Source: Scilla litardierei
Lineage: Eukaryota; Streptophyta; Magnoliopsida; Asparagales; Asparagaceae
Assembly: GCA_030789695.1 (NCBI GenBank)
Contig: CM061134.1
Span: forward strand, 58,535,334-58,599,333
Length of the DNA: 64,000 nucleotides
Reading direction: 5' to 3'
The position numbers were made by a program, and so were the translations under genes. This document shows positions 5,428-62,445 of the stretch, piece after piece. Below the pieces are notes generated by a model. It was not told the origin of the DNA, searched no databases, and saw only the letters and a list, made by a program, of their open reading frames with translations. Position 1 is the first letter of the stretch; each line of letters begins with the position of its first letter.

Positions 5428-6372
5428 TGACCGCGCACCCCGGCTTGCTATCCGCAAATGGCCGGGGGACCCGCGAGGGGTTTAGAAATTTGTAACCGCA
5501 AGCGCACGGTGTTGTAGTGTGGCTTGGGGGTCGAACACAGGGAGGCGAAGTTGTGCTTGAGTCAAGTAGGACCTAAATCACTCCGGGGGTGAGCTAGCCC
5601 GAATCGGTAAATGGTTGTCACGGAAAGAAATAAAGGGTATGAACAACAAGAAAGTAAACCCGGGACTTTGGTTTCCACTCCGACGAGAGACTCTCGCCGA
5701 TACGACCTACGGGTATGGATAGCGATCGGAATTAGGGTCTAATGGTGGGACGTTGCCTCTGAAAGTGGTACCGGCATTCCATGGGCCCGATATTCCGGTC
5801 GGTGCCCAGGATGATACACCGGACTTCCCGGATTCGATCAGTGGGCACTCCCGTGTCCATTAACACTGATCGATCCCGGGAGCACTAAGCCTGCAACGAT
5901 AACTCCCAACGTCTCATCATGCCGCTCCCGCGTGCTAGGACTCGACGTCTACGCTATGGGTGTGAGCTATGGCTAGGGAGTCAACCGCCAAGTTTATTCC
6001 CCCTTGGCCCAACGGTCAAAGGCGGTCTTTTTCCCGTCGATGACAATGAAACACCCCGCGTAACTGTTAGATTCCTAATCCCTATCGATTTCCTAACCCT
6101 ATGGACGCATCGAGAAGAGCCCTCGAAGGGGTTTCCATCAAAATCCCAGATTTGGGAACTACTCACAAAAATCCATTAAAAAGCGATCTAAATAAAAATT
6201 AACCGTTAGAATCATAATCAGACGATTGTAATGCGGAAGTAATAGAGTAGTTAAGACAATACTAAAATTTGCGAAAGATCTGAAAACTTACAAAAGAACA
6301 GAAATTACAGCCGTCACAATGTGAGAAAACAGTAAAAAACTCGCAGCTCTCGTTTCTGGAACCCTAGGGGTT

Positions 6373-6382
6373 CTATTTATAG
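6373..6382 (-). promoter_or_regulatory. TATA box of At1 3' LTR
   Basis: Minus strand CTATAAATAG, about 10 bp downstream of the palindrome array in transcription order. Same in the right LTR at 13933-13942. Confidence 0.75.
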
Positions 6383-6391
6383 ACTCTCGCA

Positions 6392-6765
6392 TCAACTGAT
6401 CGGTTGACAAGTCAACCGATCGGTTGATCCGTTACAAAATAATAACAGAAAACGGCGAGCTTTCACCCGATCATATGAACCGGTCGGGTGAGTTCTTGAG
6501 TGACCGGTTGGATCTTGACGCCGTCGGGTGAATCGATCGGTTTGGTGCCCGTGTCTTCAGCTCCTCATCTTCAGCTACAGATGAACCGATCGGGTGAGAG
6601 TCACCCGATCGGTTGGCATTTTGCTCGAAAAGACAGAGAACAGGCCCCCGCTGAACCGGTCTGTGAACCGGTCGGGTGACTTCCATGTGAGCTCCGGCTG
6701 AGACCGGGTGGTGCATGCGTGCATCACCCGATCGGTTGGAGATGGCCAACCGACCGGGTGAGGGG
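6392..6765. repeat. Palindrome array (AACCGATCGGTT type) in At1 U3
   Basis: About ten sites built on ACCGATCGG or ACCGGTCGG with arms ending in either GGTTGA or GGGTGA. Several are full palindromes, e.g. around 6411-6426 and 6606-6616. The right LTR repeats it at 13952-14325. Confidence 0.9.
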
Positions 6766-7006
6766 CTGAAAGATGAATTCTTTGACGTTTGACCCCCTGG
6801 ATCACGCGTGACTCCTCCCTTTGCTCCGGGGACTTGAGATATCATCGTTAAACGTCCCCTACGTGGTCAACCTCCTGCAAACATGGATAGGCAAAGAAAA
6901 GTGAAAGAAAACGAGAAAATACGAGAAAACGAATAAAAGACGGCGAAAAACACGGAGAAACACAAAAGAAAACGTGCGTGAATATATGAAATATAAACGC
7001 ACGTCA

Positions 7007-7045
7007 AAATCCCCCAAGCTGAACTCTTCCTCGTCCTCGAGGAAG
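7007..7045 (-). other. At1 polypurine tract with upstream hairpin
   Basis: Purine tract (minus: CAGCTTGGGGGATTT, 7007-7021) lies against the LTR start. Just upstream is a perfect 8-bp stem CTTCCTCG / CGAGGAAG with loop AGGA (minus; 7026-7045). The same hairpin-plus-tract unit occurs in At2 and At3. Confidence 0.85.
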
Positions 7046-9542: not shown

Positions 9543-9897
9543 AAGTCGAACCGATCGGGTGACTTGTCACCCGATCGGTTGACGATTAGGTCAAAATTCT
9601 TGCCGAAGAATTGCTACAGGTGAACCGGTCGGTTGACTTGTCAACCGATCGGTTGGCCGCTCCACTCATTTTCCCGAGAATTGAGGGCTGCTCACCCGGT
9701 CGCTTCAACCGATCGCGCTCGAACTCAACCGATCGGTTGATATTCCCCAAAAAATTTCCCGAGAGTTCTCCCTAGCTCACCCGGTCTGTCACCCGGTCTC
9801 CTCATTCCTCAACCGATCGGGTCATTTGGGGACAGATCTCGGCATGTATCTAATACATCCCAACCGATCGGGTGAGAATCAACCGATCGGTTGGGGC
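9543..9897. repeat. Internal copy of the At1 palindrome array
   Basis: About ten sites of the same ACCGATCGGTT / ACCGATCGGGTGA family found in the At1 LTRs, outside any LTR. Full palindromes include those near 9545-9582 and 9626-9655. The spacers between sites are not copies of the LTR spacers, so this is not a simple LTR fragment. Confidence 0.88.
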
Positions 9898-12987: not shown

Positions 12988-14566
12988 TGACCGCGCACCC
13001 CGGCTTGCTATCCGCAAATGGCCGGGGGACCCGCGAGGGGTTTAGAAATTTGTAACCGCAAGCGCACGGTGTTGTAGTGTGGCTTGGGGGTCGAACACAG
13101 GGAGGCGAGGTTGTGCTTGAGTCAATTAGGACCTAAATCACTCCGGGGGCGAGCTAGCCCAAATCGGTAAATGGTTGTCACGGAAAGAAATAAAGGGTAT
13201 GAACAACAAGAAAGTAAACCAGGGACTTTGGTTTCCACTCCGACGAGAGACTCTCGCCGATACGGCCTACGGGTATGGATAGCGATCGGAATTAGGGTCT
13301 AATGGTGGGATGTTGCCTCTGAAAGTGGTACCGGCATCCCATGGGCCCGATATTCCGGTCGGTGCCCAGGATGATACACCGGACTTCCCGGATTCGATCA
13401 GCGGGCACTCCAGTGTCCATTAACACTGATCGATCCCGGGAGCACTAAGCCCGCAACGATAACTCCCAACGTCTCATCCTGCCGCTCCCGCGTGCTAGGA
13501 CTCGACGTCTACGCTATGGGTGTGAGCTATGGCTAGGGAGTCAACCGCCAAGTTTATTCCCCCTTGGCCCAACGGTCAAAGGCGGTCTTTTTCCCGCCGA
13601 TGACAATGAAACACCCAGCGTAACCGTTAGATTCCTAATCCCTATCGATTTCCTAACCCTATGGACGCATCGGGAAGAGCCCCCGAAGGGGTTTCCACCA
13701 AAATCCCAGATTTGGGAACTACTCACAAAAATCCATTAAAAAGCGATCTAAATAAAAATTAACCGTTAGAATCATAATCAGACGATTGTAATGCGGAAGT
13801 AATAGAGTAGTTAAGACAATACTAAAATTTGAGAAAGATCTGAAAACTTACAAAAGAACAGAAATTACAGCCGTCACATTGTGAGAAAACAGTAAAAAAC
13901 TCGCAGCTCTCATTTCTGGAACCCTAGGGGTTCTATTTATAGACTCTCGCATCAACCGATCGGTTGACAAGTCAACCGATCGGTTGATCCGTTACAAAAT
14001 AATAACAGAAAACGGCGAGCTTTCACCCGATCATATGAACCGGTCGGGTGAGTTCTTGAGTGACCGGTTGGATCTTGACGCCGTCGGGTGAATCGATCGG
14101 TTTGGTGCCCGTGTCTTCAGCTCCTCATCTTCAGCTACAGATGAACCGATCGGGTGAGAGTCACCCGATCGGTTGGCATTTTGCTCGAAAAGACAGAGAA
14201 CAGGCCCCTGCTGAACCGGTCTGTGAACCGGTCGGGTGACTTCCATATGAGCTCCGGCTGAGACCGGGTGGTGCACGCGTGCATCACCCGATCGGTTGGA
14301 GATGGCCAACCGACCGGGTGAGGGGCTGAAAGATGAATTCTTTGACGTTTGACCCCCTGGATCACGCGTGACTCCTCCCTTTGCTCCGGGGACTTGAGAT
14401 ATCATCGTTAAACGTCCCCTACGTGGTCAACCTCCTGCAAACATGGATAGGCAAAGAAAAGTGAAAGAAAACGAGAAAATACGAGAAAACGAATAAAAGA
14501 CGGCGAAAAACACGGAGAAACACAAAAGAAAACGTGCGTGAATATATGAAATATAAACGCACGTCA
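12988..14566 (-). repeat. At1 5' LTR
   Basis: Same length and ends as 5428-7006. It contains the same array (13952-14325) and TATA box (13933-13942), here positioned to drive gag. Confidence 0.96.
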
Positions 14567-14571
14567 CAAAG
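14567..14571. other. Target site duplication of At1, right copy
   Basis: CAAAG, identical to 5423-5427. Confidence 0.95.
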
Positions 14572-14647: not shown

Positions 14648-15736
14648 TCAGAAAAGCCTGTCGCCTCGACGGAAAGCTTGCTGGAAAGCCTGCCTCTGTG
14701 GAACAAGAGCTGCTCCACGTCCAGCAGGAACAGACGCCCTCTGCTGCAACGACGACGCTGCAACAGGTGCCCTCCAAGGCTGCTTCGACCTCGGACAATC
14801 CTTCATGACATGGGTAGGATCCCCACGGACGACACACTGGCCCAGGAATCTCCTACACTGATCCTTGACGTGCCCGGTCCTGCCGCAGAAATGGCAAGTC
14901 TTCAGAATAGGCCCTCCTGGCCTCTTGAACTGAGTTGGCTGATTAGGCTTGAAACCAGGCCTAACCACCGCCCTGGCCTGCTCCATAGGCCTCTTCCCAG
15001 CACCAGAAACATGTCCCCTCCTCTGACTCAGGTTCAGCTCCTGCCTCCTTGCAGCGACCAGAACCTTCTGATAAGAGTCCAGATCAGAGGAAGACACAAA
15101 ACTCTGGAGCTCCAAAGCAAGTCCCTGCAGGAACCTCTGAGCCCTCTCATCAGCATCCTGCACCATCTTCGGTGCGAACCGACTCAGCCTAGTGAACTCT
15201 TGGTGGTACTGGTCCACCGTCAAGCTCCCTTGCTTCAGATCAATGAAACGCTGCATCATCTCCTTCTTAGCAGCCTTCGGAAAGAACTCCTCATCAAACC
15301 TGGACTTAAAGGTAGCCCAAGCTATCGGCTCCACCAACATCTTCTCTTCCGCAACCCACCAGTTCCGAGCGTTATCCTTGAGTTGCCGCTTTGCCAAATC
15401 AACCCATCCAGCCAGGGTGATCTTGGCCATCCTCAGGTTATCCTCAATGTTCCGAATCCACTCATCGGCAGCCAGAGGACCTTCAGACCCATCAAAATAT
15501 GCGGGACCCAGCTCCCGAAATTGCTTCGCTCCCGGCTCGGAGTGAGGGGCCTCCGGAGCCGCCCGAGGAGCTCGACCAGCCGGAGCATTCTGGACTTACA
15601 GGCGCATGCCTTGCTGCACCTGCATCATCTGAAGCATCATCCGCATCATCTCCCTATTGGTGGGTTCCCGCTCAGGCTCCTCGTCATGAGGGGGCGCACC
15701 ACTACCACCACCACGGGTGATTCGCCTTCCTGCCAT
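14648..15736 (-). pseudogene. Tk1 gag with zinc knuckle, one stop
   Basis: Starts at ATG 15734-15736 and runs toward the At1 insertion. The N-terminal part has WIRNIEDNL and the Retrotrans_gag pattern LAKRQLKDNARNWW...FKSRFDEEFFP...QYHQEFTRLSRFAP. The CCHC knuckle CHFCGRTGHVKDQC is near 14880. A TAA at 15596-15598 breaks the N-terminal end. Downstream the frame continues to a stop at 14648, before the 14567-14571 insertion point. The product packages element RNA. About 360 codons is a normal length for Tekay gag before protease. Confidence 0.88.
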
Positions 15737-15879: not shown

Positions 15880-17858
15880 TGTCACGCCCCGCTTCCCTAA
15901 AATGGAGGCGAGACGTGAAAAGGTCCGCACGAGAGTGGAGCTGTGAAGCCCCAAACCCGATAAGCGTCAATAAATCGTAAGCAGGTCCCTGTAACCACAA
16001 ACGGAACAACAATAATAACTCAAGGAGAGACAAACAAAATCTCAATCTCAGAAATTGTCCAACATTAAAAATTAAGTTCAACATCCAGAAAAACCACCAG
16101 GCTAAAAGAAAGAGTCTAAAGGCCCAGAACAAGGCCAAACAAGGACAAACGTAAACAGAGTATAGGTGCTGCGCACCGACAACTACAGCAGTCTAAAACA
16201 AAAAGGGGAAGCTCAACGAAGACACTAGGACTGGTCCCCAGTGTCCACGTACTCCTCGCCAAACACAGACTCGGGCACGGCGTCCGCAAACACCTCGTCC
16301 TCAACAACGGACTCAGGCTCGGGATCTAACATGTGTCACCCAAAAGAGTAAAGGGGCACATGTCAGCAAGTCTAAAAGACTTGGGCAAGGAAACTGAAGG
16401 TAAGGTAAATTAGCAACCTAGCAGTTATAGTATGATGCATGTCAAGTATAGTATGGAAGTGACAAGTAAAGGGAAGTACAAGTAGCAAGTATGTCATGGA
16501 TAACAAGTAAAACACGGACAAGTACAAGTCAAGTGGTTCACGTCAAGTGAACAAGTCAAGTAAACAAGTTGTGCACAGAGATTCCGCCTGTTGGTTAGAG
16601 TGGCTGATCGGGCCAACTCCTAAGCTCAAGTGACCGTTTCTCTCTACCCCTCCACGTGTATCGAGCCAGGGAATTACCCCAAACACGGAATGCTCGCTTC
16701 TGGAACACGAGCCAGGAAGTGTATTTAACAAGTATGGCATAGGGTTATGCCTGCAACGCAGGTGCCTAGCCGGTAAACAAGTAGATCGGGCATTGGCTAT
16801 CAACCAACTCACGTAGCCCGCTTCTGGAACACGGGCAAGGAAACACAAGTATCGTAGCGTGTGCTACGAATGCGACATACAACATGGATAACATGGATGA
16901 CACTTAATTCACATACCGTTAATCAAAATAAAACATGACATGATAGTTATGCAACATGATAAATGACGGTCCTAGCTTCGTTGTCAAGCTAGTTCCTGAA
17001 ATTGTGCCTAGGCGAGTATCATTTCGTCGCCTAGTCTCTTTTACGCCTACAACAAGCAAATGGCCTAAGACATGGCCCAAACCCTAAGTGGCAAGTTTCA
17101 CTTGCCTAGCACCGAGGATGACGATCACGTAGGTTTGTCACACAAATGCTAGCTACGGAAAAGAGATCGCTGCCATGGCAAAACAACATTAGAACAACAT
17201 CCAACCTAATTTTATTAGGGTTTCACAAAAACACAACGGGTTATGAGAATATTAAGAGTTCGATTTATTACCGTATCGGAAGCGGAAGAACGATGTCGAG
17301 CAAGCACGGCAACGGAAGAAATGATCCGGGGAACCTAGGGTTCAGATCTAGAATGGATGGGGAAATTCTGGAGAAATGTGGTTTTGGGGATTTTTGGGGG
17401 TTGGAGATGACCTAGGGCATGGTGGTAGACCAAAATAGAGAGGGAAACTCCAAGGGAGGAAGGAATGGCTTGGGGAATTGTTGGAGAGTGATTTAGGGAA
17501 GAAGGGGGCACAGGAGAATGAAAGAGGGGTGAAAGAAATCGTGGGTGGGGTTTAAATAGAGAGTGCTGGCGGCTGCCCAGAAATTAGGGTTTCGACACTG
17601 ATTAGTCGGTCAAAGAGCAACCACTGACCGACTAGTTTGGGAACTAGTCGGTCGGTTGACCAACGCAGACCGACTAAGTCCAAAAAGTAACTCTTGCACA
17701 AAAATAGGATTTAGATTTAGTCGGTCAAAGAACAACTACTGATTGACTAGTTTGTCATCTAGTCGGTCGATGAACGTTCTTAGACCGACTAAGAATGAAT
17801 AGTACTTGGCATCAAAAATGAACATAGAGTTAGTCGGTTAAAGAACATTTGCTGACCG
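15880..17858 (-). repeat. Tk1 5' LTR, U3 start missing
   Basis: Ends (minus) with GGCGTGACA at 15880, as in Tk2 (21726). It matches the left LTR until 17858, where it stops inside the palindrome array; about 420 bp that are present at 1491-1910 are absent. TATA box at 17550-17559. Confidence 0.92.
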
Positions 17859-19560: not shown

Positions 19561-19982
19561 GTTAGCCGGTGTAAGAAGGGGAACCGACCGACTAGATGAC
19601 GATTTAGTCGGTTGGCAAACCTTCATGGACCGACTAGTGGGCTTAGTAAATTACTCAGGAGTTACTGTTTATCGTTAGTCGGTCTAAGAACATTGGTCGA
19701 CCGATTAGGTTGCAAACTAGTCGGTCAGCAATTGTTCTTTAACCGACTAGCTCTATGATCATTTTGATACCAAGTACTATTCATTCTTAGTCGGTCTAAG
19801 AACGTTCATCGACCGACTAGATTTGAAACTAGTCGGTCAGTAGTTGTTCTTTGACCGACTAAATCTAAATCCTATTTTTGTACAGGAGTTACTGTTTGGA
19901 CTTAGTCGGTCTGCGTTGGTCAACCGACCGACTAGTTCCCAAACTAGTCGGTCAGTGGTTGCTCTTTGACCGACTAATCAGT
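19561..19982. repeat. GACCGACTAG / CTAGTCGGTC array in Tk2 U3
   Basis: Four to five inverted pairs in 420 bp. Individual arms have drifted but pairing is mostly kept. Repeated spacers carry GGAGTTACTGTTT (19656, 19885). Confidence 0.9.
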
Positions 19983-21726: not shown

Positions 21727-22361
21727 GACGGACCCTGACGGATTCCAGTAACTTCGGACTTTTGGGGGTCGGCTCCTCGGGAGTCACTCGGCCGAGTGAC
21801 TTTCTTTGCTTCGGCCGAGGGGACTTCTTCACTCGGCCGAGTCGGAACTCGGGACTGTACAGACGGATTACAGTAAGTCTGGGATTTTTCTTACCGTCGT
21901 CTTGATGCCACTCGGGCGAGTGGTGTCTCCGTGGTTCGGCCGAGTGGGCTGGCGATGGTCGGCCGAGTGCACGCTGATACTCATTCTGTCGCGTGTCCGA
22001 ACTGGCCGACCGAGCGGGCTGTCGATGGTCGGCCGAGTGACTCCTTCACTCGGCCGAGTGACATGCTGAAAATGCCCAATCTTCGTATTTTTTCTCCCTC
22101 GTCGCTCCTACGACGTTCTTTCTTCTTCCACTCCTCTCCAGTAGAAAAATTCCCCTCGAAAGAGTCACGGGTGACACTCCGGAGTGGGTGCATCTGCATC
22201 TCAGAATCACTCCAAATCGCTCCAAATCTCCTGAAATTCAACAAAAACAAGAAATCGTGAAAAGCATCGCAATATTGTCGAATAATCGTGAAAAACACGA
22301 TTTGAGCGATCAAAATGGCATGCAAACATGCAGAAAAAAGGTGTAAAATATGGAGTGATCA
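21727..22361 (-). repeat. At0: fragment of an Athila-like LTR (CTCGGCCGAG type)
   Basis: On the minus strand it starts TGATCACTCCATATTTTACACC at 22361, closely similar to the starts of the At3 (31770) and At4 (57165) LTRs, and carries the CACTCGGCCGAGTG array (21786-22065). It stops at 21726, where the Tk2 LTR ends, so Tekay material probably inserted here. The rest should lie left of the window. Confidence 0.82.
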
Positions 22362-31672: not shown

Positions 31673-31764
31673 CCAAAAATGCACAGTGAGATAGAATTCC
31701 AGAGAATAACAACACTCACCCTAGGACCTATACTCTAATCACAAATACATCTTAAAATCATTAT

Positions 31765-31769
31765 GAAAC
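31765..31769. other. Target site duplication of At3, left copy
   Basis: GAAAC here, AAAAC at 39132-39136; four of five match. Confidence 0.7.
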
Positions 31770-32083
31770 TGATCGGTCCATATTTTACACCTTTTTCTGC
31801 ATATTTGCATGCCATTTCGGTTGCTCATATTGCGATTTTCACGATTATTCGATGATATTGTGTTACTTTTCACTATTTCTTGTTTTTGTCGGATTTCAAG
31901 AAATATGAGCAATTGGGAGCAAAAAATGAGCTTAAAGGACTTGCACGCGTAATGGAGCATCGCTCATGGACTTATTGAGGACCTATCAGCGATAGAAGAT
32001 GAGTGGAAGAAGAAAGAACGTCGTAGGAGCGACGAGTAAGCGAAATGATGAAGATTGGGCATTTTCAGCATGCCACTTGGTCG

Positions 32084-32590
32084 AGTGAAGGAGTCACTCG
32101 GCCGAGCAAATAAGCCCGCTCGACCGGCCAGATCGGATACGCAATTGCTTGAAGATTAGCGTGCACTCGGTCGAGTGACGACATCCCACTCGTCCGAGTA
32201 TGGCGACACCACTCGCCCGAGTGGCACACGAACGACGGCATCCAAAAGACTAGACTTACTATAATCCGTCAGTCGACTTCGAGCTCCGACTCGGCCGAGT
32301 ACCAAAATCCCCTCGACCGAGTGACATTTGCCGCTCGGCCGAGTGATGCCGAGGACACGCAGCGCCCAGATTTTCAGATAGCCTCCTACTCTTTTGAAAT
32401 TTGCTATCATTCCAGCAATCAAAGTATTTTTCTCATATTTTTTATGCATAGTATACTTCATGAAGATTCCAACGCCGCTAAAAACGCACAAATCGGAGGT
32501 CGAATGAAATCTGGGGAATTTCTGCAAGTTGATGCTGCAGTGCTGAAATTTCCACTCGGCCGGGTCACATGTTCCACTCGGCCGAGTGCG
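32084..32590. repeat. CACTCGGCCGAGTG array in At3 U3
   Basis: About twelve CTCGGCCGAG-type sites, several drifted (CTCGTCCGAG, CTCGCCCGAG, CTCGACCGAG). The 3' LTR has the same array at 37434-37945. Confidence 0.9.
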
Positions 32591-32681
32591 GCCTGGGCCC
32601 AGATTTTAAGTTGCGGTTTGGGCTGTTTTTAGGCACGAATTTGAGGGGGTTTCTAGGGTTATTTTCTAGGGTTTTGGGAGA

Positions 32682-32690
32682 CTATATAAG
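32682..32690 (+). promoter_or_regulatory. TATA box of At3 5' LTR
   Basis: CTATATAAG, 90 bp after the array. The 3' LTR copy is 38040-38048. Confidence 0.75.
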
Positions 32691-33076
32691 GGTTTTGTAG
32701 CCACCATTAGAGGGGGTTCCCAATATGTTTTCCTGAGGTTCCCACATGTTTTCTTAGAGTTATTTTTAGAGGTTAGGCCATGCCCTAGGCCCCCTCTTGG
32801 ATCTAAAAGCTTGTATTTTGGATTGAAGATCTTCATCAAGCTAAGTATTTTGTTCTTATTGTTTGAATCTTTGTTTTGATATCTTTATATATGCAAGCAA
32901 TGTTTTTTTATCGATTTCTCTATCGTTATTGCTATGCTTGAGTAGATTTGAAGTTCTAGGGCATGGGGATGAACCCTATGGATCTAATTTCAGATTTGTG
33001 ATGAATGAATTTCTAAATTGCTAGAATTGCTAGGAGGTTAGGTTGTGATCGATTTATTACGGATAGCTAGGGATTT

Positions 33077-33378
33077 CCATCGATTGGGGTTTGCAAGAGA
33101 TTGGATTCTAATCGATGGGAAGGCCTAAATTTTCGATTTAGGTTTATAATCGAGATTCTCTAGACTTGGTTTGCAAGAGATTGGACCAAAGCTAGGATTT
33201 TTATTATAAATCTATACCCATATTCGTTTGCAAGAGATTGGACGAATACGAACTATCACAACCTAGATCGTGACTCGAGTTTGCACGAGAGTGGGCTCGA
33301 GGAGCGATTACACGATGATGTCGACCCTAATGCTAGTGGCTTAGGTTAGGGTTTGCGCGAGAGTGGGCCCTAACCTAG
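33077..33378 (+). other. Five hairpins with a constant loop in the transcribed part of the At3 LTR
   Basis: Each hairpin has a 16-base loop core TTTGC(A/G)(A/C)GAGA(T/G)TGG(A/G) and its own stem. Stems: CCATCGATT/AATCGATGG (33077-33118, extended inward by G-C and G-T pairs), CTAGACTTGG/CCAAAGCTAG (33160-33195, 8 of 10), TATTCG/CGAATA (33221-33248), CTCGAG/CTCGAG (33274-33301) and TTAGGTTAGGG/CCCTAACCTAG (33341-33378, 10 of 11). The set lies downstream of the TATA box, so it would be in the RNA. It also occurs in the 3' LTR (38434-38740) and in At4 (58321-58618). Confidence 0.85.
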
Positions 33379-33780
33379 ATTACTATAGACCGACAATAGC
33401 GCGAGAGCGTGAGCTTGGTTCTCTATTCAGTTACGACTAGTTCACCTCGACACAAGTCTCGTAATATTGAGATTCACGATTTACAAGGATGAATGACGAT
33501 CCGTAGTGGGGATTCCCTAGCCCTAGACACTTTTATTATATTTTGTTTGAATCGATATTTGACTGACTTCTTTATCACCGACATCGACATCCACCACCAT
33601 TGTCATTACATCATACCATAACCATCTCCACCAATAAAACATTCGTAGTCGAGCCAACCTAGGATAGATTGGAACCAACACCACCTCCTCGTGTTCGATA
33701 CCTGCTCGCCACTTGACCGTGCGCTTGCGGTAAAACTACAATTGTTCTCCGGGTGTATATCCGGGGCCCGATCAAGTTTT

Positions 33781-33798
33781 TGGCGCCGTTGCCTGGGA
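33781..33798 (+). other. Primer binding site of At3 (tRNA-Asp type)
   Basis: TGGCGCCGTTGCCTGGGA, one mismatch to the tRNA-Asp complement, six bases inside the LTR. Confidence 0.88.
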
Positions 33799-33960
33799 GG
33801 TGTTTCCCGTTGGGTGCCAATTTGTCACAATTAGGCTGATTTGACGAAAATTTTTTTTAAAAAGGGAAATTTTCACCCCCGCCACCATTACTATCATTTC
33901 TATATTATTTTGTGCCACTGATATTTTTCTCCAGGTATTTATCTTTGCTTATCAGGTGTT

Positions 33961-35148
33961 ATGGATGGTATTATGTGGACCGCAGATTTTGAGGAGGAAG
34001 CATTTCAGAACTTATTGGAGGGCCTCTTGGAGTCAGTGAGGTTCACCGGTTCAGAGAGCATTACAGCAGATGATGCATTTGATCTATGATTTGTAGATTT
34101 TGTTATGAACCGTGTTTCAGCTGCAGGAACAATTGAGGAGGACATCCATGTCAGTCTTGAGGGGGATAGACTATATTTTCAGATTGCTTGCGGGCATTTC
34201 CCTCTACATGATACATCCCCACAAGTTGACATACCTGAGCAGCCAGCATCACCATCCCAGAGAGAGCCTACATTGATAGTTGATGAGAAGGCAAAGGAGC
34301 ACACTATCGAGCCAGAGCATATTGCTGAGGATGCCTCACATACGGAGCCAGAGCATGCTTTTGAGGAGGCCTTACACACAGAGCCAGAGCTTATCACCGA
34401 GGAGGTCGTGCATCGGGACGAGGACACAGCCATTCATGAGGATCCCGAGCACTATCCTCCTCCATTAGAGCTTCCGCAGCCACCTCATCCTCCCACTGAC
34501 GCAGAGGACTACCCCACAGAGCTTTTGGCCCCCCTTTAGGGAGATCTCTTTACTCCCTCACCCTTTATCTTTGATTTCCCTCCCATGTATGATGTTTTTT
34601 ATGATTCATCGTGCCTTTTGCAGGATTCATGTACATATGATCAAGAGGTACGATGGGACGTATATGAGGAGGAGAGCGAGGAGTTAGCACCCATGGACGC
34701 ATATGAATATGATCAAAAGGTGCACTGGGATGAGTCTGACGATGAGGATGAGCATCTTGATGAGGTCCACACCTATGATCTAGATTTACCTGAGCAGCAT
34801 AGAGAAGACACCGTGGAGACAGCTATCACGGCACGTGAGGATATTGGATTATTTCCAAGGAAGTATCGTCCACCATTATTTATTCCATACATTTCTATAG
34901 ACGATCCTCTTTGGGATACTTTTATTATGAGGGTGAATTTTTTGCAGTGAACTGATGCATCCTATTCTTTGCAGGGTACATGTGGAGTCCTTGTGGGAAT
35001 GCTGGAGGATGCATTGCTGGAGTTCGTTGGAATCCATGGACATACGCGCCTGGCAGAGCCACGGAAAGAGCAGTTGGAGCAGTTGCCTGCACCGGCAAAG
35101 ATACTGGATCCGCCTTTTGCTATAGGTGATATCAATCCAGTAGTGTAG
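33961..35148 (+). pseudogene. At3 acidic ORF of unknown function, three stops
   Basis: One frame of about 395 codons from the ATG at 33961 to TAG 35146-35148, interrupted by TGA 34087-34089, TAG 34537-34539 and TGA 34948-34950. The protein is very rich in Glu and Asp, with repeats of the type EPEH(I/A)...EDA.HTEPE (34300-34400) and a His/Pro-rich stretch. The end PYISIDDPLWDTF ... AKILDPPFAIGD matches the end of the At2 gene (FICFDDPFWNAF ... IRDPPFA). No gag core, zinc knuckle or enzyme domain. The stop at 34948 is followed by a pyrimidine run and TTTGCAG, so a small intron there is also possible. Confidence 0.65.
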
Positions 35149-35569
35149 AAATTTTATGCTTTCAATAAACACGAATCCTCTCGACAGCGAGGGGGCCGAA
35201 TAGATTTGATTGAATAAATATCAACTCATATGACGGCAACAAAAATCTTTTACACCCCAAACCCATTATATATATTAATTGCCCTCTTCATATTTGATAC
35301 GCCACATCCTTTTGCTCACCACCATCGAGCATTTCTTTCAAGTGAATACTCACTTTCTTATTCATTTGACTTGACCACTCTTTGCAACGCCATGACATTT
35401 TTGATTGAGTCATTTGAATAGGATTGTTTGGTACAAGCTTGGGGGAAAGCGCTCTCATGCATCATTGTATGTGCATGTAGTTGCATTAGGATTTCATGTC
35501 ATTCATTTCATCATTTTTCATTCACCCCCATTATTATTATCGTTGTTCTTCATATTCTTCCACTATGAT

Positions 35570-35606
35570 CACATTGAGGACAATGTGAAGTTTAAGCTTG
35601 GGAGAG
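35570..35606 (+). other. Internal hairpin and polypurine tract of At3
   Basis: CACATTG / CAATGTG, a perfect 7-bp stem with loop AGGA (35570-35587), then AAGTTT and AAGCTTGGGAGAG (35594-35606). About 1.5 kb upstream of the 3' LTR. Confidence 0.72.
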
Positions 35607-37086
35607 TGCATTTCCATGCCATTTAGATGCATTAGCTGCATTTTTACTTTATTTTAGGGTTTTTAGAATTTTTAAAAAATTTGGCATCATCTTTTTGATT
35701 TTTCCATCTTATTTTCCTTTTATGAGTGTTCATGCATCATATTGCGTGCTTGATTTTTCTTTTCTTTCCTCTCATTTATTTTTATTTCTTTATTTTCCTT
35801 TTTTCTTCTTCCGCTAGATGAGTTTTGTATGATGATATCTCTTATTGCTTTACCAACCATCACGATGCTTATTATTCCTTGCCATGCTACTTAGATTATT
35901 CCATAGTCTTGCTATTCACATGTGCTTGCAAATCTATTTCTTTTGATGATTCCTCTACATGAATGCATGATATTAATTGAAACTGAATGTATGGATTAGT
36001 GTTTAGTATGCTTTTGTTGGAAATGCACCAAGATTCACGCATCATTAGTATATCTGAAGCATCAGTTTTATTGTCTTATTCGCCTCCTGTTGCATCTTGA
36101 TATGATTGTACGCTTTACTGCTTGACTTCACTATTTATTGAAATGATTGAGAATATCCATGCTTACATATGAGTTTTAGTTGAAGTATTATTTTATTGAA
36201 CCGTTCGTGCACATCTTATAGTGAACCGAGTGTTACATTATTTCTTTCTCCACATATATCTTTTTATTCTCTACATGTCACTTGAGTTCACCTCCTAAAG
36301 CTACTTATATCACATCTATTTCCCAAAAATCCCCACAAAAGAAAAAGTTAGCTCCAAAAAGTCCAAAAAGCCAAAAAGGAGCAAAAATCCAAAAAAACAA
36401 ATCATATGGCTCCTACAAAAATCCAAAAAGAAAAATGAGAAACAAAGTCCAAAAGAAAAAAGGGATATTTCTCTATCTCATTATTGGAGCCACAAAATAC
36501 TTGGGAAAACCAAGGCAAAAATCCCATTTTCCACTATCATATTCCTTTAGATGCGATGCCTCAAGCTAAGCTTGGGGGGGGGGGACTCGTTTGACCATAT
36601 GAGTGAGTACGACATTAGAGTGGAGAGGTGCACGAATGAGGAAGTTTGATAATGTTGAAACTTAGCAAAATACTTTAGTTATGGAGATTTCTTATGAATC
36701 GATGTAAATATGCGAATGCCATGTCTCTTATTCCATTCTCTATTGCATGCTTGGTGTGATTCTAATATGCTACAGTTATAACTCTTGATTGAAAAGTGCA
36801 TCGCCAACATTTGTATATTAAATCCTATGAAATGCGTGACGTGGATATGAATTGATTGTATTTATTTAGAGAATCCCTTTTGTTGTTCTTAAAATCTTGC
36901 AAGTACCATGTTTATGTAAGATATGAAATCCTTATAGCATGTGATTTGTATTTTCCAAGTTATCGTGATGTGTAGCTTATGGCTTGAGATCTGAGAGAAG
37001 AATCTAGCGACCCCTTCCACCTCGTGTTCTTTCTTTTTCATTCCATTTTCTTTATTTTCATCTCCCGAGTTCGTCTCTCTACTTAT
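35607..37086. other. At3 3' non-coding stretch
   Basis: AT-rich, no gene. It holds an A-rich run of CCAAAAAG repeats (36330-36460) and a further purine-tract-like AAGCTTGGGGGGGGGGA (36566-36583). Confidence 0.55.
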
Positions 37087-37125
37087 CTTCCTCGAGGACG
37101 AGTAAGAGGTAAGCTTGGGGGATTT
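37087..37125 (+). other. At3 terminal hairpin and polypurine tract
   Basis: CTTCCTCG / CGAGTAAG with one mismatch and loop AGGA (37087-37106), then AAGCTTGGGGGATTTT to the LTR edge. Nearly the same hairpin as in At1 (7026-7045). Confidence 0.82.
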
Positions 37126-39131
37126 TTATCGGTCCATATTTTACACCTTTTTTCTACATATTTGAATGCCATTTCGGTTGCTCACATTGCGATTTTCACG
37201 ATTATTCGATGATATTGTGTTACTTTTCACTATTTCTTGTTTTTGTCGGATTTCAGGAAATATGAGCAATTAGGAGCAAAAAATGAGCTTAAAGGACTTG
37301 CACGCGTAATGGAGCATCGCTCATGGATTTATTGAGGACCTATCAGCGATAGAAGACGAGTGGAAGAAGAAAGAACGTTGTAGGAGCGACGAGTAAGCGA
37401 AATGATGAAGATTGGGCATTTTTAGCATGCCACTCAGCCGAGTGAAGGAGTCACTCGGCCGAGCAAAGAACCCCGTTCGGTCGGCCAGATCGGACACGCA
37501 ATTACTTGAAGATTTGCGTGCACTCGGCCGAGTGATGACATCCCACTCGTCCGAGTATGGAGACACCACTCGCCCGAGTGGCACACGAATGACGGCATCC
37601 AAAAGACCAGACTTACTGTAATCCTTCAGTCGACTACGAGCTCCGACTCGGCTGAGTACCAAAAGCCCCTCGGCCGAGTGACGTTTGCCGCTCGGCCGAG
37701 TGATGCCGAGGACACGCAGCGCCCAGATTTTCAGACAGCCTCCTACTCTTTTGAAATCAGCTATCATTACAGCAATAACAGTATTTTTCTCATATTTTTT
37801 TATGGATAGTAGACTTCATGACGATTCCAACGCCGCTAAGAACGTGCAAATCAGAGGTCGGATGAAATCTGGAGAATTTCTACAAGTTGATGCTGCAGTG
37901 CTGGAATTTCCACTCGGCCGGGTCACATGTTCCACTCGGCCGAGTGCGGCCTGGGCCCAGATTTTAAGTTGCGGTTTGGGCTGTTTTTGGGCACGAATTT
38001 GAGGGGTTTTCTAGGGTTATTTGCTAGGGTTTTGGGAGACTATATAAGGGTTTTGTAGCCACCATTAGTGGGGGTTCCCAATATGTTTTCTTGAGGTTCC
38101 CACATGTTTTCTTAGAGTTATTTTTAGAGGTTAGGCCATGCCCTAGGCCCCCTCTTGGATCTAAAAGCTTGTATTTTGGATTGAAGATCTTCATCAAGCT
38201 AAGTATTTTGTTCTTATTGTTTGAATCTTTGTTTTGATATCTTTATATATGCAAGCAATGTTTTTTATCGATTTCTCTATCGTTATTGCTATGCTTGAGT
38301 AGATTTGATGTTCTAGGGCATGGGGATGAACCCTATGGATCTAATTTCAGATTTGTGATGAATGAATTTCTAAATTGCTAGAATTGTTAGGAGGTTAGGT
38401 TGTGATCGATTTATTACGGATAGCTAGGGATTTCCATCGATTGGGGTTTGCAATAGATTGGATTCTAATCGATGGGAAGGCCTAGTTATTCGATTTAGGT
38501 TTATAATCGAGATTATCTAGACTTGGTTTGCAAGAGATTGGACCAAAGCTAGGATTTTTATTATAAATCTATACCCATATTCGTTTGCAAGAGATTGGAT
38601 GAATACGAACTATCACAACCTAGATCGTGACTCGAGTTTGCACGAGAGTGGGCTCGAGGAGCGATTGCACGATGATGTCGATCCTAATGCTAGTGTCTTA
38701 GGTTAGGGTTTGTGCGAGAGTGGGCCCTAACATAGATTACTATAGACATGCAATAGCGTGAGAGCGTGAGCTTGGTTCTCTATTCAGTTACGACTAGTTC
38801 ACCTCGACACAAGTCTCGTAATATTGAGCTTCACGATTTACAAGGATGAATGACGATCCGTAGTGGGGATTCCCTAGCCCTAGACACTTTTATTATATTT
38901 TATTTGAATCGATATTTGACCGACTTCTTTATCACTGACACCGACATCCACCACCATTGTCAATACATCATACCATAACCATCTCCACCAATAAAACATT
39001 CGTAGTCGAGCCAATCTAGGATAGATTGGAACCAATTCCACCTCCTCGTGTTCGATACCCGCCGGCCACTTGACCGTGCGCTTGCGGTAAAACTACAATC
39101 GTTCTCCGGGTATATATCTGGGGCCCGATCA
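37126..39131 (+). repeat. At3 3' LTR
   Basis: 2006 bp; the first bases read TTATCGG instead of TGATCGG, so the terminal TG has mutated. Array 37434-37945, TATA 38040-38048, hairpin set 38434-38740 with one loop changed to CAATAGATTGG. Confidence 0.93.
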
Positions 39132-39300
39132 AAAACCAATAAATCCATTGAAACACAAATTACTCCAATCAACTTCGAAAACTCATGAAATCAAATAAGT
39201 CACAATTGCCTTTCTTAATCTCATAAAACAATAAAGCACATGAAGAAAGAAAATTAAGAATATGAGCTCAATAAGGAGTTATAGCATGAAAATTGAGCTT
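39132..39300. other. Si1 spacer between pol and At3
   Basis: AT-rich, non-coding; begins with the At3 target duplication. Confidence 0.6.
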
Positions 39301-52776: not shown

Positions 52777-53371
52777 AGCCCCCGTCTGAGAGGGGCTGTA
52801 GCCGAAAAATGCCCTGGCAGCACATATAACCCCCCTCCAGCGAGGGAGGGGGGGTGGCACACAGGGAAACACCCCAACGAGGGGGGGGGGGGGGGTATCG
52901 TAGAGGAGCCCCACCACTCGGGGTAGGGGGTGGGGCGTAGAGAACCCCCGTTGTCGGGGGGGGGGGGGGGGGGGCGAAGGACAGAGCCCCCCATCCAGGG
53001 GTGTCGCACAGAACCCCCCTGGGGGAGGTGCGTCGGACAGAGCCCCATCATCGGTGGGGGCATCGCGACGACAGAGGCCCACCCCGACGGGGGGGGGGGG
53101 GGGGGGGGGGGATCGACAGACCCCCCCGTCTTAGGGGGGCGGGCGGCGACAGAGGGCCCCCACTGTCCGGGGGAGCGGGCGGCGACAGAGCCCCCCGACG
53201 GGGGGGGGGGGGGGTTGCGGCGACAGAGGCCCCCCGACGGGGGGGACCGACAGAGCCCACCCGTCCGGGGGCGGGCGGAGACAGAGGCCCCCGACGAGGG
53301 GGATCGACAGAGCCCCACCCGTCCGGGGGCGGGCGGTGATCGGACACAGAGCCCCCTTTCGAGGGGAGCTG
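52777..53371. repeat. Array of C-run/G-run hairpins with CAGAG spacers
   Basis: About twelve units of the form (GA)CAGAG-CCCCC-few bases-GGGGG, e.g. GCCCCCGTCTGAGAGGGGC at the left end and GCCCCCTTTCGAGGGG at the right. Unit length 35-60 bp. Long G runs (up to about 20) may be miscounted by sequencing. Confidence 0.8.
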
Positions 53372-57470: not shown

Positions 57471-57840
57471 CACTCGGCCGAGTGAACCACCCACTCGGCC
57501 GAGCAAGAAGACCACTCGGCCGACCAGACCGGACATTCACCAACAGAAGGAAATAGGCGTGCACTCAGCCGAGTAACGATAGTCCACTCGGCCGAGCATG
57601 GAAATCCCCATCGCCCGAGTGGCATGGGAAAATCCACTTCAAAAGAGGCCGACTTACTATAAATGTACAGGCTCTTGGCGGTTCCGACTCGGCTCGAGCA
57701 AGAGATGCCCCTCGGCCGAGTGAGTAAAGCCACTAGGGCCGAGTCACTTCCGAAGACAGACCCCCGAAAAGTCCCGACTTACTGTTATTGTACAGGGTTT
57801 GTCACTCGGCCGAGTGACAATTGTCACTCGGACCGAGTGA
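57471..57840. repeat. CACTCGGCCGAGTG array in At4 U3
   Basis: About eleven sites, including full CACTCGGCCGAGTGA palindromes near 57471 and 57802. GACTTACT followed by TGTACAGG occurs twice within it (57650, 57776). Confidence 0.9.
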
Positions 57841-57933: not shown

Positions 57934-58320
57934 CCAGTTTTGCCCTAGTTTAGAAGAACTTTTTTGATACTTTTGGCAGCCTTTTTAGAGAGCTTTTTAG
58001 ATCAATAGATTAAGCTTTTCTCTTGAAGATTAAAATGCTATTTTTGTTGGATGCTATTGGGTTCTCATTGGTTTGTCTCTCTTCTTATCAAAAATCCTAT
58101 TTTTGTTGATAATTTCTCTATTGCAATGAATTGTGTTGATTTTTCTATTGAATTTCTTATGGATTGCATGATGATTATTAAGTAGTTTTATTATCATAGG
58201 GCATAAGGATGAACCCTATGAACCCTATTTCTAAGTTGTGCTGAATTGGTGAAATTCTTGCTAGAATTGATTAGGGTTAGGTTGGGATTGATTTATTACG
58301 GATAGCTAGGGACTCATATT

Positions 58321-58618
58321 GATTGGGATTTGCAAGAGATTGGATCCCAATTGATAGGAAGCCCTAGAGATTCGATTTAGATTTGAGATTGGACTCCCCT
58401 AGAATTGGTTTGCAAGAGATTGGGCCAAAGCTAGGGTTTTTAATCGTGCTTCTATACCAATACCCGTTTGCAAGAGATTGGACGGGTACGAACTATCTCA
58501 ACCTAGGTCGTAGCTCGAGTTTGCACGAGAGTGGGCTCGAGATACGATTGAACGATGATGTCGATCCTAATGCTAGCGGCTTAGGTTAGGGTTTGCAAGA
58601 GATTGGGCCCTAACCTAG
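58321..58618 (+). other. Five constant-loop hairpins in the At4 LTR
   Basis: Loop core TTTGC(A)(A/C)GAGA(T/G)TGG(A/G). Stems: ATTGGGA/TCCCAAT (58322-58351), CCCTAGAATTGG/CCAAAGCTAGGG (58397-58436, 10 of 12), TACCCG/CGGGTA (58461-58488), CTCGAG/CTCGAG (58514-58541) and TTAGGTTAGGG/CCCTAACCTAG (58581-58618). The third has TATTCG/CGAATA in At3: both arms changed together. Confidence 0.87.
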
Positions 58619-58980
58619 GTTTGCTATAGACCGGCAATAGCGCGAGAGCGTGAGCTTGGTTCCACATTTAGTTGCGACTAGTTCACCTAAAATTCAAGTC
58701 TAGCAATGATGTAACCTACGAATCACAACGATGAGATACGGTCCATAGCGGGGATTCCCAATCCCTAGGCACTTTATTTCATTAATATTTCTATCGATAT
58801 ACGAACGATTGTGTCAGTTTTACCTCAAATTATTCTTGACCATTTTGATAGCTATGTGATTAGAACGAGACACCGTCATTGTTCCTCCCTGAGTTCGATA
58901 CACTCTCTCCACTACTCCGTGTGCTTGCGGTAAAGCTACAATCGTACCCCGGGTGTATATCCGGGGCCCGACCAAGTTTT

Positions 58981-62107: not shown

Positions 62108-62445
62108 GTCACTCGGCCGAGTGCATATGCCACTCGGCCAAGCAAAGACTCCACTCGGCCGAGTGGAGCACCAAACAGGAAAGTTTCTGCAGACCAACTC
62201 TCTGTCAATTTCTGTAAGTTTTAGTTTTAATTGCCACTCGGGTGAGTGACTTGTCACTCGGCCGAGTGAAACAGATACCCTCCTAGCTTAAAAATTGCTG
62301 AGTGGCAGAGCCACTCGGCTGAGTGGAGTTTCTCCCTTCTGCCGAGTGAACCAAAGCCACTCGGCCAAGTTGTAAGTGGCAAGGTGATTTTCGAAATTTT
62401 TCCCGTTTACGCACTCGGCCGAGTGACATTGTCACTCGGCCGAGT
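62108..62445. repeat. Internal copy of the At4 palindrome array
   Basis: About nine CACTCGGCCGAGTG-type sites outside the LTR, between gag-protease and the third ORF: e.g. 62110, 62132, 62152, 62254, 62411, 62433. Same motif as the At4 LTR array. Confidence 0.9.

What the first reader, a model, noticed from the sequence alone, without database searches (positions are those of the whole stretch)
33077..33378. Five successive LTR hairpins share one loop sequence but have different stems
In the transcribed part of the At3 LTR, TTTGC(A/G)(A/C)GAGA(T/G)TGG(A/G) appears five times, each time between the arms of a different inverted repeat. In hairpin 1 the stem is extended only if G-U pairs on the sense RNA are allowed (33086-33089 with 33106-33109), which points to RNA rather than DNA structure. 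A fixed loop on variable stems is the pattern of a repeated RNA recognition element, for example for gag packaging or dimer formation.
Basis: partly seen in the sequence, partly recalled or inferred. Interest (0 to 1): 0.88.

Follow-up and report, generated by a model that had tools for sequence, protein, structure and literature searches.

The report
Repeated RNA hairpins in plant retrotransposon
A very abundant plant jumping gene carries, in the part of its end repeat that should lie near the start of its RNA, five hairpins with different stems but the same tip, and the pattern of mutations suggests that selection kept this RNA fold while the element was still copying itself.

Summary
The 16-nt motif occurs five times (33090-33367), each time inside its own inverted repeat. 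The element's other LTR and a relative about 80% identical (58.3 kb) carry the same five. The host genome (3.68 Gb) holds 198,509 exact motif copies, against 16 for the reversed pattern. Of 69 LTRs examined, 67 show all five, mostly at spacing 80/57-59/53/71-74.

The "loop" is itself folded: a U.G pair, a UG bulge, a 3-bp stem with a covarying closing pair (A-U or C-G), and a GAGA tetraloop.

On a tree of 62 arrays, changes on internal branches keep pairing 109:31 (share 0.78; expected 0.55, 0 of 1000). Changes on terminal branches behave as neutral (0.48; expected 0.475). Internal changes also favour G.U over A.C (59:13), which points to the sense RNA. A strict per-pair test is weak: one significant pair.

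Function is not shown. I favour a multivalent signal by which Gag, or another particle protein, recognises the genomic RNA. Nuclear export or translation is the main rival. Transcription is inferred, and no other plant species could be searched.

The parts
31770..33774 (+). 5' LTR (copy A) of the element that holds the array
   Evidence: 95.7% identical to the second LTR over 2002 aligned positions; flanks GAAAC / AAAAC
32683..32689 (+). TATA-like box TATATAA, 407 nt upstream of motif 1
   Evidence: TAT(A/T)TAA in 28 of 29 aligned LTRs, TATATAT in one; promoter activity not tested
33039..33049 (+). 5' arm of the predicted long-range stem P0 around hairpins 1-3
   Evidence: 11 bp perfect with 33255-33265; predicted in both A and C; its test pair is in 37 of 62 single-sequence folds
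33060..33135 (+). hairpin 1 (motif 33090-33105)
   Evidence: its test pair is in 57 of 62 single-sequence folds
33139..33214 (+). hairpin 2 (motif 33170-33185)
   Evidence: 61 of 62 folds
33221..33248 (+). hairpin 3 (motif 33227-33242)
   Evidence: 46 of 62 folds
33255..33265 (+). 3' arm of P0
33266..33309 (+). hairpin 4 (motif 33280-33295)
   Evidence: 62 of 62 folds
33336..33383 (+). hairpin 5 (motif 33352-33367)
   Evidence: 62 of 62 folds; its tip pair 33358-33363 is the one individually significant covarying pair; RNAalifold on 62 sequences keeps the tip but not the outer stem
33399..33410 (+). possible sixth hairpin, GCGC-GAGA-GCGU, without the TTTGC motif
   Evidence: predicted in A and C and 41 of 62 folds; not supported beyond chance by the tree test
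33781..33798 (+). primer-binding site
   Evidence: TGGCGCCGTTGCC found exactly in 10 of 29 aligned copies, at 691 nt after motif 1 in copy A; tRNA-Asp match is recalled
37126..39131 (+). 3' LTR (copy B)
   Evidence: the start was read by eye, the script used 37128
38396..38767 (+). same array in copy B; motifs at 38447, 38527, 38584, 38637, 38709, two of them with 1 mismatch
58278..58651 (+). same array in the relative (copy C); motifs at 58329, 58409, 58467, 58520, 58592
   Evidence: 80.7% identical to copy A

Best explanation
The array is a structured RNA element in the 5' leader of the element's genomic RNA, between promoter and primer-binding site. Five (perhaps six) stems, three of them probably gathered on a junction, each present the same tip (U.G pair, UG bulge, 3-bp stem, GAGA tetraloop). 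The most likely reader of the tip is the element's own Gag or another protein of its particle. Binding several tips at once would let it pick the genomic RNA, including that of copies without gag such as the one at 31.8-39.1 kb. Shown by sequence analysis: the array, its order, the predicted sense-strand fold, and constraint on pairing in lineages that went on copying. Inferred: that the region is transcribed, that a protein reads the tips, and that this protein is Gag.
For: Array and spacing in 67 of 69 LTRs; 198,509 motif copies against 16. Tip pair 7-12 is A-U 113, C-G 29, U.G 2, A.C 1 of 145. Internal branches keep pairing (0.78 against 0.55, 0 of 1000) and prefer G.U to A.C; terminal branches are neutral. 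The motif columns are the best kept of the classes compared (0.95 pairwise identity) and the rest of the array has 0.82, against 0.66-0.74 for three other LTR stretches. It lies downstream of a TATA-like box and upstream of the primer-binding site. The element 31.8-39.1 kb has no stop-to-stop frame over 149 aa inside, yet keeps the array. The only strict CX2CX4HX4C knuckles in the window lie at 14855, 43793 and 50891, outside this family's elements.
Against: No RNA, binding or packaging data. The poly(A) site is unknown, so the array may also be in the 3' end and in spliced RNA. Per-pair covariation is weak: 1 of 102 pairs; in a smaller set 3 of 134, two of them with mainly non-pairing states. 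Stem P0 and hairpin 6 get no covariation support of their own, and P0's test pair is in 37 of 62 folds. For hairpin 4 the energy model prefers a six-base loop; the tip pair C5-G14 is in 3 of 62 folds. Much of the sense-antisense energy gap is base composition: shuffles differ by about 29 of 47 kcal/mol. No profile search of the gag-less interior was made.
Confidence: 0.45

Rival explanations
1. The tips bind host proteins that export the unspliced RNA, stabilise it, or help ribosomes past its long leader.
For: Same structural evidence as above. Copy A has 17 ATGs between an assumed start (32710) and the primer-binding site, which plain scanning would find hard. Constitutive export elements of retroviruses also repeat one structural unit (recalled).
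Against: Nothing here tells it from Gag recognition; no host factor is known to me for this tip.
Confidence: 0.27
2. The array serves reverse transcription, for example strand transfer between the two ends, if it lies in the R region.
For: An AATAAA follows the array in copy A, so it may be in R.
Against: AATAAA is not shared by most of the 29 copies at that place; a single structure would do, and identical tips on five stems are not needed.
Confidence: 0.1
3. The hairpins matter as targets or sources of small RNAs in silencing, as proposed for Sirevirus LTR palindromes.
For: In maize, small RNAs are enriched in structured LTR regions (passages of PMC10760457).
Against: That would not explain one tip on unrelated stems, nor why lineages that succeed keep the pairing; the same paper reports no obvious LTR peak of such structure in Ty3/RLG elements.
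Confidence: 0.08
4. DNA-level function: cruciforms or binding sites for transcription factors.
For: The U3 of these LTRs does carry family-specific DNA palindromes.
Against: Changes on internal branches favour G.U over A.C beyond a composition-matched null, which DNA would not do; the array lies downstream of the TATA-like box.
Confidence: 0.06
5. No function: the motif spread by local duplication and the stems are by-products.
For: The motif is nearly identical in the five places.
Against: The stems differ from each other and pair with themselves; constraint on internal but not on terminal branches.
Confidence: 0.04

Closest known systems
GACG-tetraloop hairpins of alpha- and gammaretroviral leaders (packaging, dimer stability)
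   Same: Several hairpins with one tetraloop sequence in the 5' leader; said to act in RNA packaging (passages of PMC516450)
   Different: GACG rather than GAGA; two main hairpins (recalled) rather than five or six; no binding shown here; different branch of retroelements
Sirevirus (Ty1/copia) LTR repeated palindromes
   Same: Plant LTRs with many copies of a structured motif (passages of PMC2829016; PMC10760457)
   Different: There the palindrome itself is repeated, upstream of the TATA box; here the tip is repeated, stems differ, and the array is downstream of the TATA-like box
Ty1 packaging region
   Same: LTR retrotransposon whose RNA selection is thought to depend on structure in the 5' part (passages of PMC8396678)
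   Different: Ty1 relies on other structures (a pseudoknot, palindromes); no repeated tip described in the passages seen
Retroviral constitutive transport elements (CTE, IAP RTE)
   Same: Repeated structural unit read by a host protein (recalled; one search found no paper)
   Different: Other location and other motif (recalled); not testable here

Membership tests
Conserved structured RNA element of an LTR retroelement | Pairing kept by selection on the sense RNA | tested here: met
   Internal branches 109 kept, 31 lost (null share 0.55, 0 of 1000), G.U:A.C 59:13; terminal branches neutral
Conserved structured RNA element of an LTR retroelement | Significant covariation pair by pair | tested here: inconclusive
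   1 of 102 pairs, 0 outside the structure, in my own R-scape-like test
Conserved structured RNA element of an LTR retroelement | Present in the transcript | not testable with these tools
   Only a TATA-like box and primer-binding site were seen
Retroviral-type packaging signal | Bound by Gag and needed for packaging | not testable with these tools
   No binding or packaging data
Gammaretroviral GACG hairpin pair | GACG tetraloops | tested here: not met
   Loop is GAGA in nearly all of 145 tips
Sirevirus LTR palindromes | One palindrome repeated upstream of the TATA box | tested here: not met
   Array is downstream of the TATA-like box and stems differ
Athila lineage of Ty3/gypsy | Place in a reverse transcriptase tree, with PBS and gag type | tested here: inconclusive
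   PBS seen, Retrotrans_gag in copy C's element; no RT tree was made and the name Athila is recalled
Rfam families, including LTR ribozymes | Match above gathering score | tested here: not met
   31700-39200: one match, a miRNA model at 30.2 bits against a cut-off of 99

The most novel reading that the evidence does not exclude
A plant Ty3/gypsy lineage, whose Gag may lack zinc knuckles, selects its RNA through a multivalent array of five or six identical bulged GNRA-tipped hairpins inside the LTR; the same signal keeps gag-less relatives mobile and has spread to about 200,000 tips in one genome.
Probability: 0.35. Interest if true: 0.85.

Novelty: new variant of a known kind. Interest (0 to 1): 0.7.

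Why it matters
As far as I know, how plant LTR retrotransposons choose their RNA, and how copies without proteins stay mobile, is largely open. This is a compact, very abundant and directly testable RNA element with a defined tip whose binding partner can be sought. The comparison of internal with terminal branches of retroelement copies also gives a clean way to tell selection on RNA from decay after insertion: here pairing is kept in the first and neutral in the second. Eight of my ten paper searches bear on prior description. In the rows listed I saw no such array; some lists were cut (15 of 329, 15 of 37), and most subscription papers are not held.

Tried and rejected
Viral contigs: two motif patterns gave 4 and 45 contigs with one match each, none with two near-matches on one strand, so chance. 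A 19-base pattern from the array found nothing in viral or genome contigs; those collections hold no plants by design. Rfam: one sub-threshold miRNA model. A near-match of the motif at 15924 and 21667 lies in another LTR pair and has only a short local stem. A covariance model of the 15 window hairpins found no further member in the window; the next best has E 0.16. The other long LTR (12988-14570) has palindromes, but I saw no shared-tip array among the repeats listed. Genome-wide tip counts are half done: G7-C12 3, C7-G12 with A6 31,509, G7.U12 255; the A7.C12 count did not complete, so no G.U against A.C comparison rests on them.

Results that cut against the reading: RNAalifold on 62 sequences did not recover hairpin 5's outer stem; one measure, pairs with double change, was reached by 32 of 500 shuffles; per-helix covariation is mostly not significant; my first expectation for terminal G.U excess (p 0.007) disappears under the better null (562 of 1000); some 40-bp bins outside the array are as well kept, e.g. 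0.88 at 33690 and 0.90 at 32490, the latter with many gaps.

Rows dropped: of 69 LTRs, L114 was left out of the trees; 68 were aligned and 62 kept below 98.5% identity; the smaller test used 20 of 29. Most LTRs were found by the motif, so '67 of 69' is conditional on having it; L099 was a place chosen blind. Some LTRs are probably the two ends of one element.

Full report
What is there. The motif TTTGC(A/G)(A/C)GAGA(T/G)TGG(A/G) occurs exactly five times between 33090 and 33367. All other matches in the window with at most one mismatch lie in two further LTRs. The flanks of each copy pair with each other: 25 of 30 positions are Watson-Crick in copy A, no random draw in 200,000 exceeds 20, and of 119 swapped assignments one ties. 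The copies sit in the LTR 31770-33774, whose partner ends at 39131 (95.7% identical; flanks GAAAC and AAAAC). Between the two LTRs the longest stop-to-stop frame is 149 aa; no profile search was made there. A relative, 80.7% identical over 613 positions, carries the same five hairpins and is followed by a frame with a Retrotrans_gag match.

The tip. In the sense RNA the shared 16 bases can fold as U1-A/G16, U2.G15, bulge UG, C5-G14, A/G6-U13, A/C7-U/G12, loop GAGA. Over five hairpins in 29 LTRs (145 tips), pair 7-12 is A-U 113, C-G 29, U.G 2, A.C 1, and pair 2-15 is U.G in 142. On the 15 window hairpins (13 distinct) 97.2% of cells pair, 7 of 11 pairs have double changes (reached by 32 of 500 shuffles), and the covariation score is 0.688 against 0.270 (0 of 500); sliding the register by one base drops pairing to about 50%. 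Energy alone does not settle the tip. In the C-G version a six-base loop is favoured by 1.1 and 2.3 kcal/mol; in the A-U version the tetraloop is favoured by 1.8. Covariation of 7 with 12 favours the tetraloop.

The wider fold. The sense strand of 33030-33430 folds at -149.5 kcal/mol (z -7.2), the antisense at -102.6 (z -5.5); shuffle means are -106.5 and -77.0, so much of the gap is composition. The relative gives -156.5 (z -7.7) with the same layout: an 11-bp stem around hairpins 1-3, then hairpins 4 and 5, and a short sixth GAGA hairpin. Between A and C, 117 pairs are predicted in both; 128 of A's pairs stay paired against 117.2 expected (1 of 5000), 6 change on both sides against 1.5 (11 of 5000), and 2 become A.C against 8.4. 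In single-sequence folds of 62 arrays the test pair of each helix is present in 37 (P0), 57, 61, 46, 62, 62 (hairpins 1-5) and 41 (sixth); the sense strand is the more stable in 62 of 62.

Abundance and order. The genome holds 198,509 exact motif copies against 16 for the reversed pattern. All five copies are found in 25 of 26 sampled LTRs, 39 of 40 more and 3 of 3 in the window. Spacing is 80 between motifs 1 and 2 in each of the 67, then 57-59, 53 and 71-74, with three exceptions (45 in L087; 43 in L130 and 54 in L132), while arrays go down to 71% identity. The exception L114 has lost about 1 kb of its LTR, including hairpins 1-3. Mean pairwise identity is 0.95 in the motif columns and 0.82 in the rest of the array, against 0.73 in U3, 0.66 between TATA and array, and 0.74 after it.

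Selection on RNA. I aligned 68 arrays, kept 62, built a tree and counted changes by parsimony. Cells paired: 94.4%, against 82.8% when the same changes are re-placed along the tree within paired or unpaired sites (0 of 500). Pairs with double changes: 23 against 14.1 (3 of 500). Covariation score: 23.1 against 20.0 (5 of 500). By helix, the share paired exceeds the null for P0 and hairpins 1-5 (at most 2 of 500), not for the sixth (195 of 500); per-helix covariation is mostly not significant. The sharpest test splits branches. Internal branches, where lineages went on copying, keep 109 and break 31 pairs; terminal branches, mostly life after insertion, keep 143 and break 154 (Fisher 2.5e-9). 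The two classes differ in mutation types, so I re-placed each branch's own changes among paired sites of the same base. Internal branches keep a share of 0.779 against 0.551 (sd 0.021, 0 of 1000) and turn Watson-Crick pairs into G.U rather than A.C with a share of 0.819 (59:13) against 0.649 (0 of 1000). Terminal branches give 0.481 against 0.475 (322 of 1000) and 0.600 (108:72) against 0.602 (562 of 1000). So pairing of the sense RNA was constrained while lineages copied themselves and free afterwards. Cautions: the structure was drawn from copy A, the nulls ignore rate differences within a site class, and per pair only 33358-33363 is significant (1 of 102, none outside the structure). A smaller set gave 3 of 134, two of them with mainly non-pairing states.

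What it does. A TATA-like box lies 407 nt upstream of motif 1 in copy A; 28 of 29 aligned LTRs have TAT(A/T)TAA there and one TATATAT. The exact primer-binding site was found downstream in 10 of 29. The array should therefore lie in the 5' leader; whether it is also at the 3' end depends on the poly(A) site, which I could not place. One tip on unrelated stems suggests a reader of the tip that profits from several copies. The element without gag keeps the array, as a cis-acting signal should be kept. Strict zinc knuckles occur at three places in the window, none in this family's elements. The 120 listed of 790 relatives of a neighbouring element's gag-protease protein show no zinc-knuckle family among their Pfam accessions (the accession is recalled). 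RNA choice by this type of Gag may therefore rest on something else. That is why I put Gag or particle recognition first (0.45) and host export or translation second (0.27). Loop-loop dimerisation looks unlikely.

Against what is known. The nearest working analogue is the GACG hairpins of retroviral leaders (passages of PMC516450). Sirevirus palindromes lie upstream of the TATA box (passages of PMC2829016); in maize such structures peak in Copia LTRs but show no obvious peak in Ty3/RLG elements (passages of PMC10760457). Ty1 relies on other structures (passages of PMC8396678). No Rfam family reaches its cut-off in 31700-39200. I rate it a new variant of a known kind, function unproven. The name Athila is recalled and was not tested by a tree.

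Noticed in passing
32552-32588, 37436-37946, 57472-57831, 62114-62445, 21781-22057: Many copies of a palindrome close to CACTCGGCCGAGTG, in the part upstream of the TATA-like box in copies A and B and in related stretches.
   Followed up: partly
13949-14322 and 9548-9895: Another LTR element (LTRs 5428-7009 and 12988-14570) has its own palindrome, near CAACCGATCGGTTG, in the LTR and also inside the element. Family-specific palindromes recall Sirevirus repeated motifs.
   Followed up: partly
1225-1619, 17602-17791, 19586-19976: Tandem arrays of a third palindrome, near GACCGACTAGTCGGTC, with units of about 113 bp.
   Followed up: no
52829-53336: Very G+C-rich tandem repeats with a run of 23 G.
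   Followed up: no
L114 (G000:C1:3902980-3903610): An LTR copy with an internal deletion of about 1 kb that removes hairpins 1-3.
   Followed up: partly
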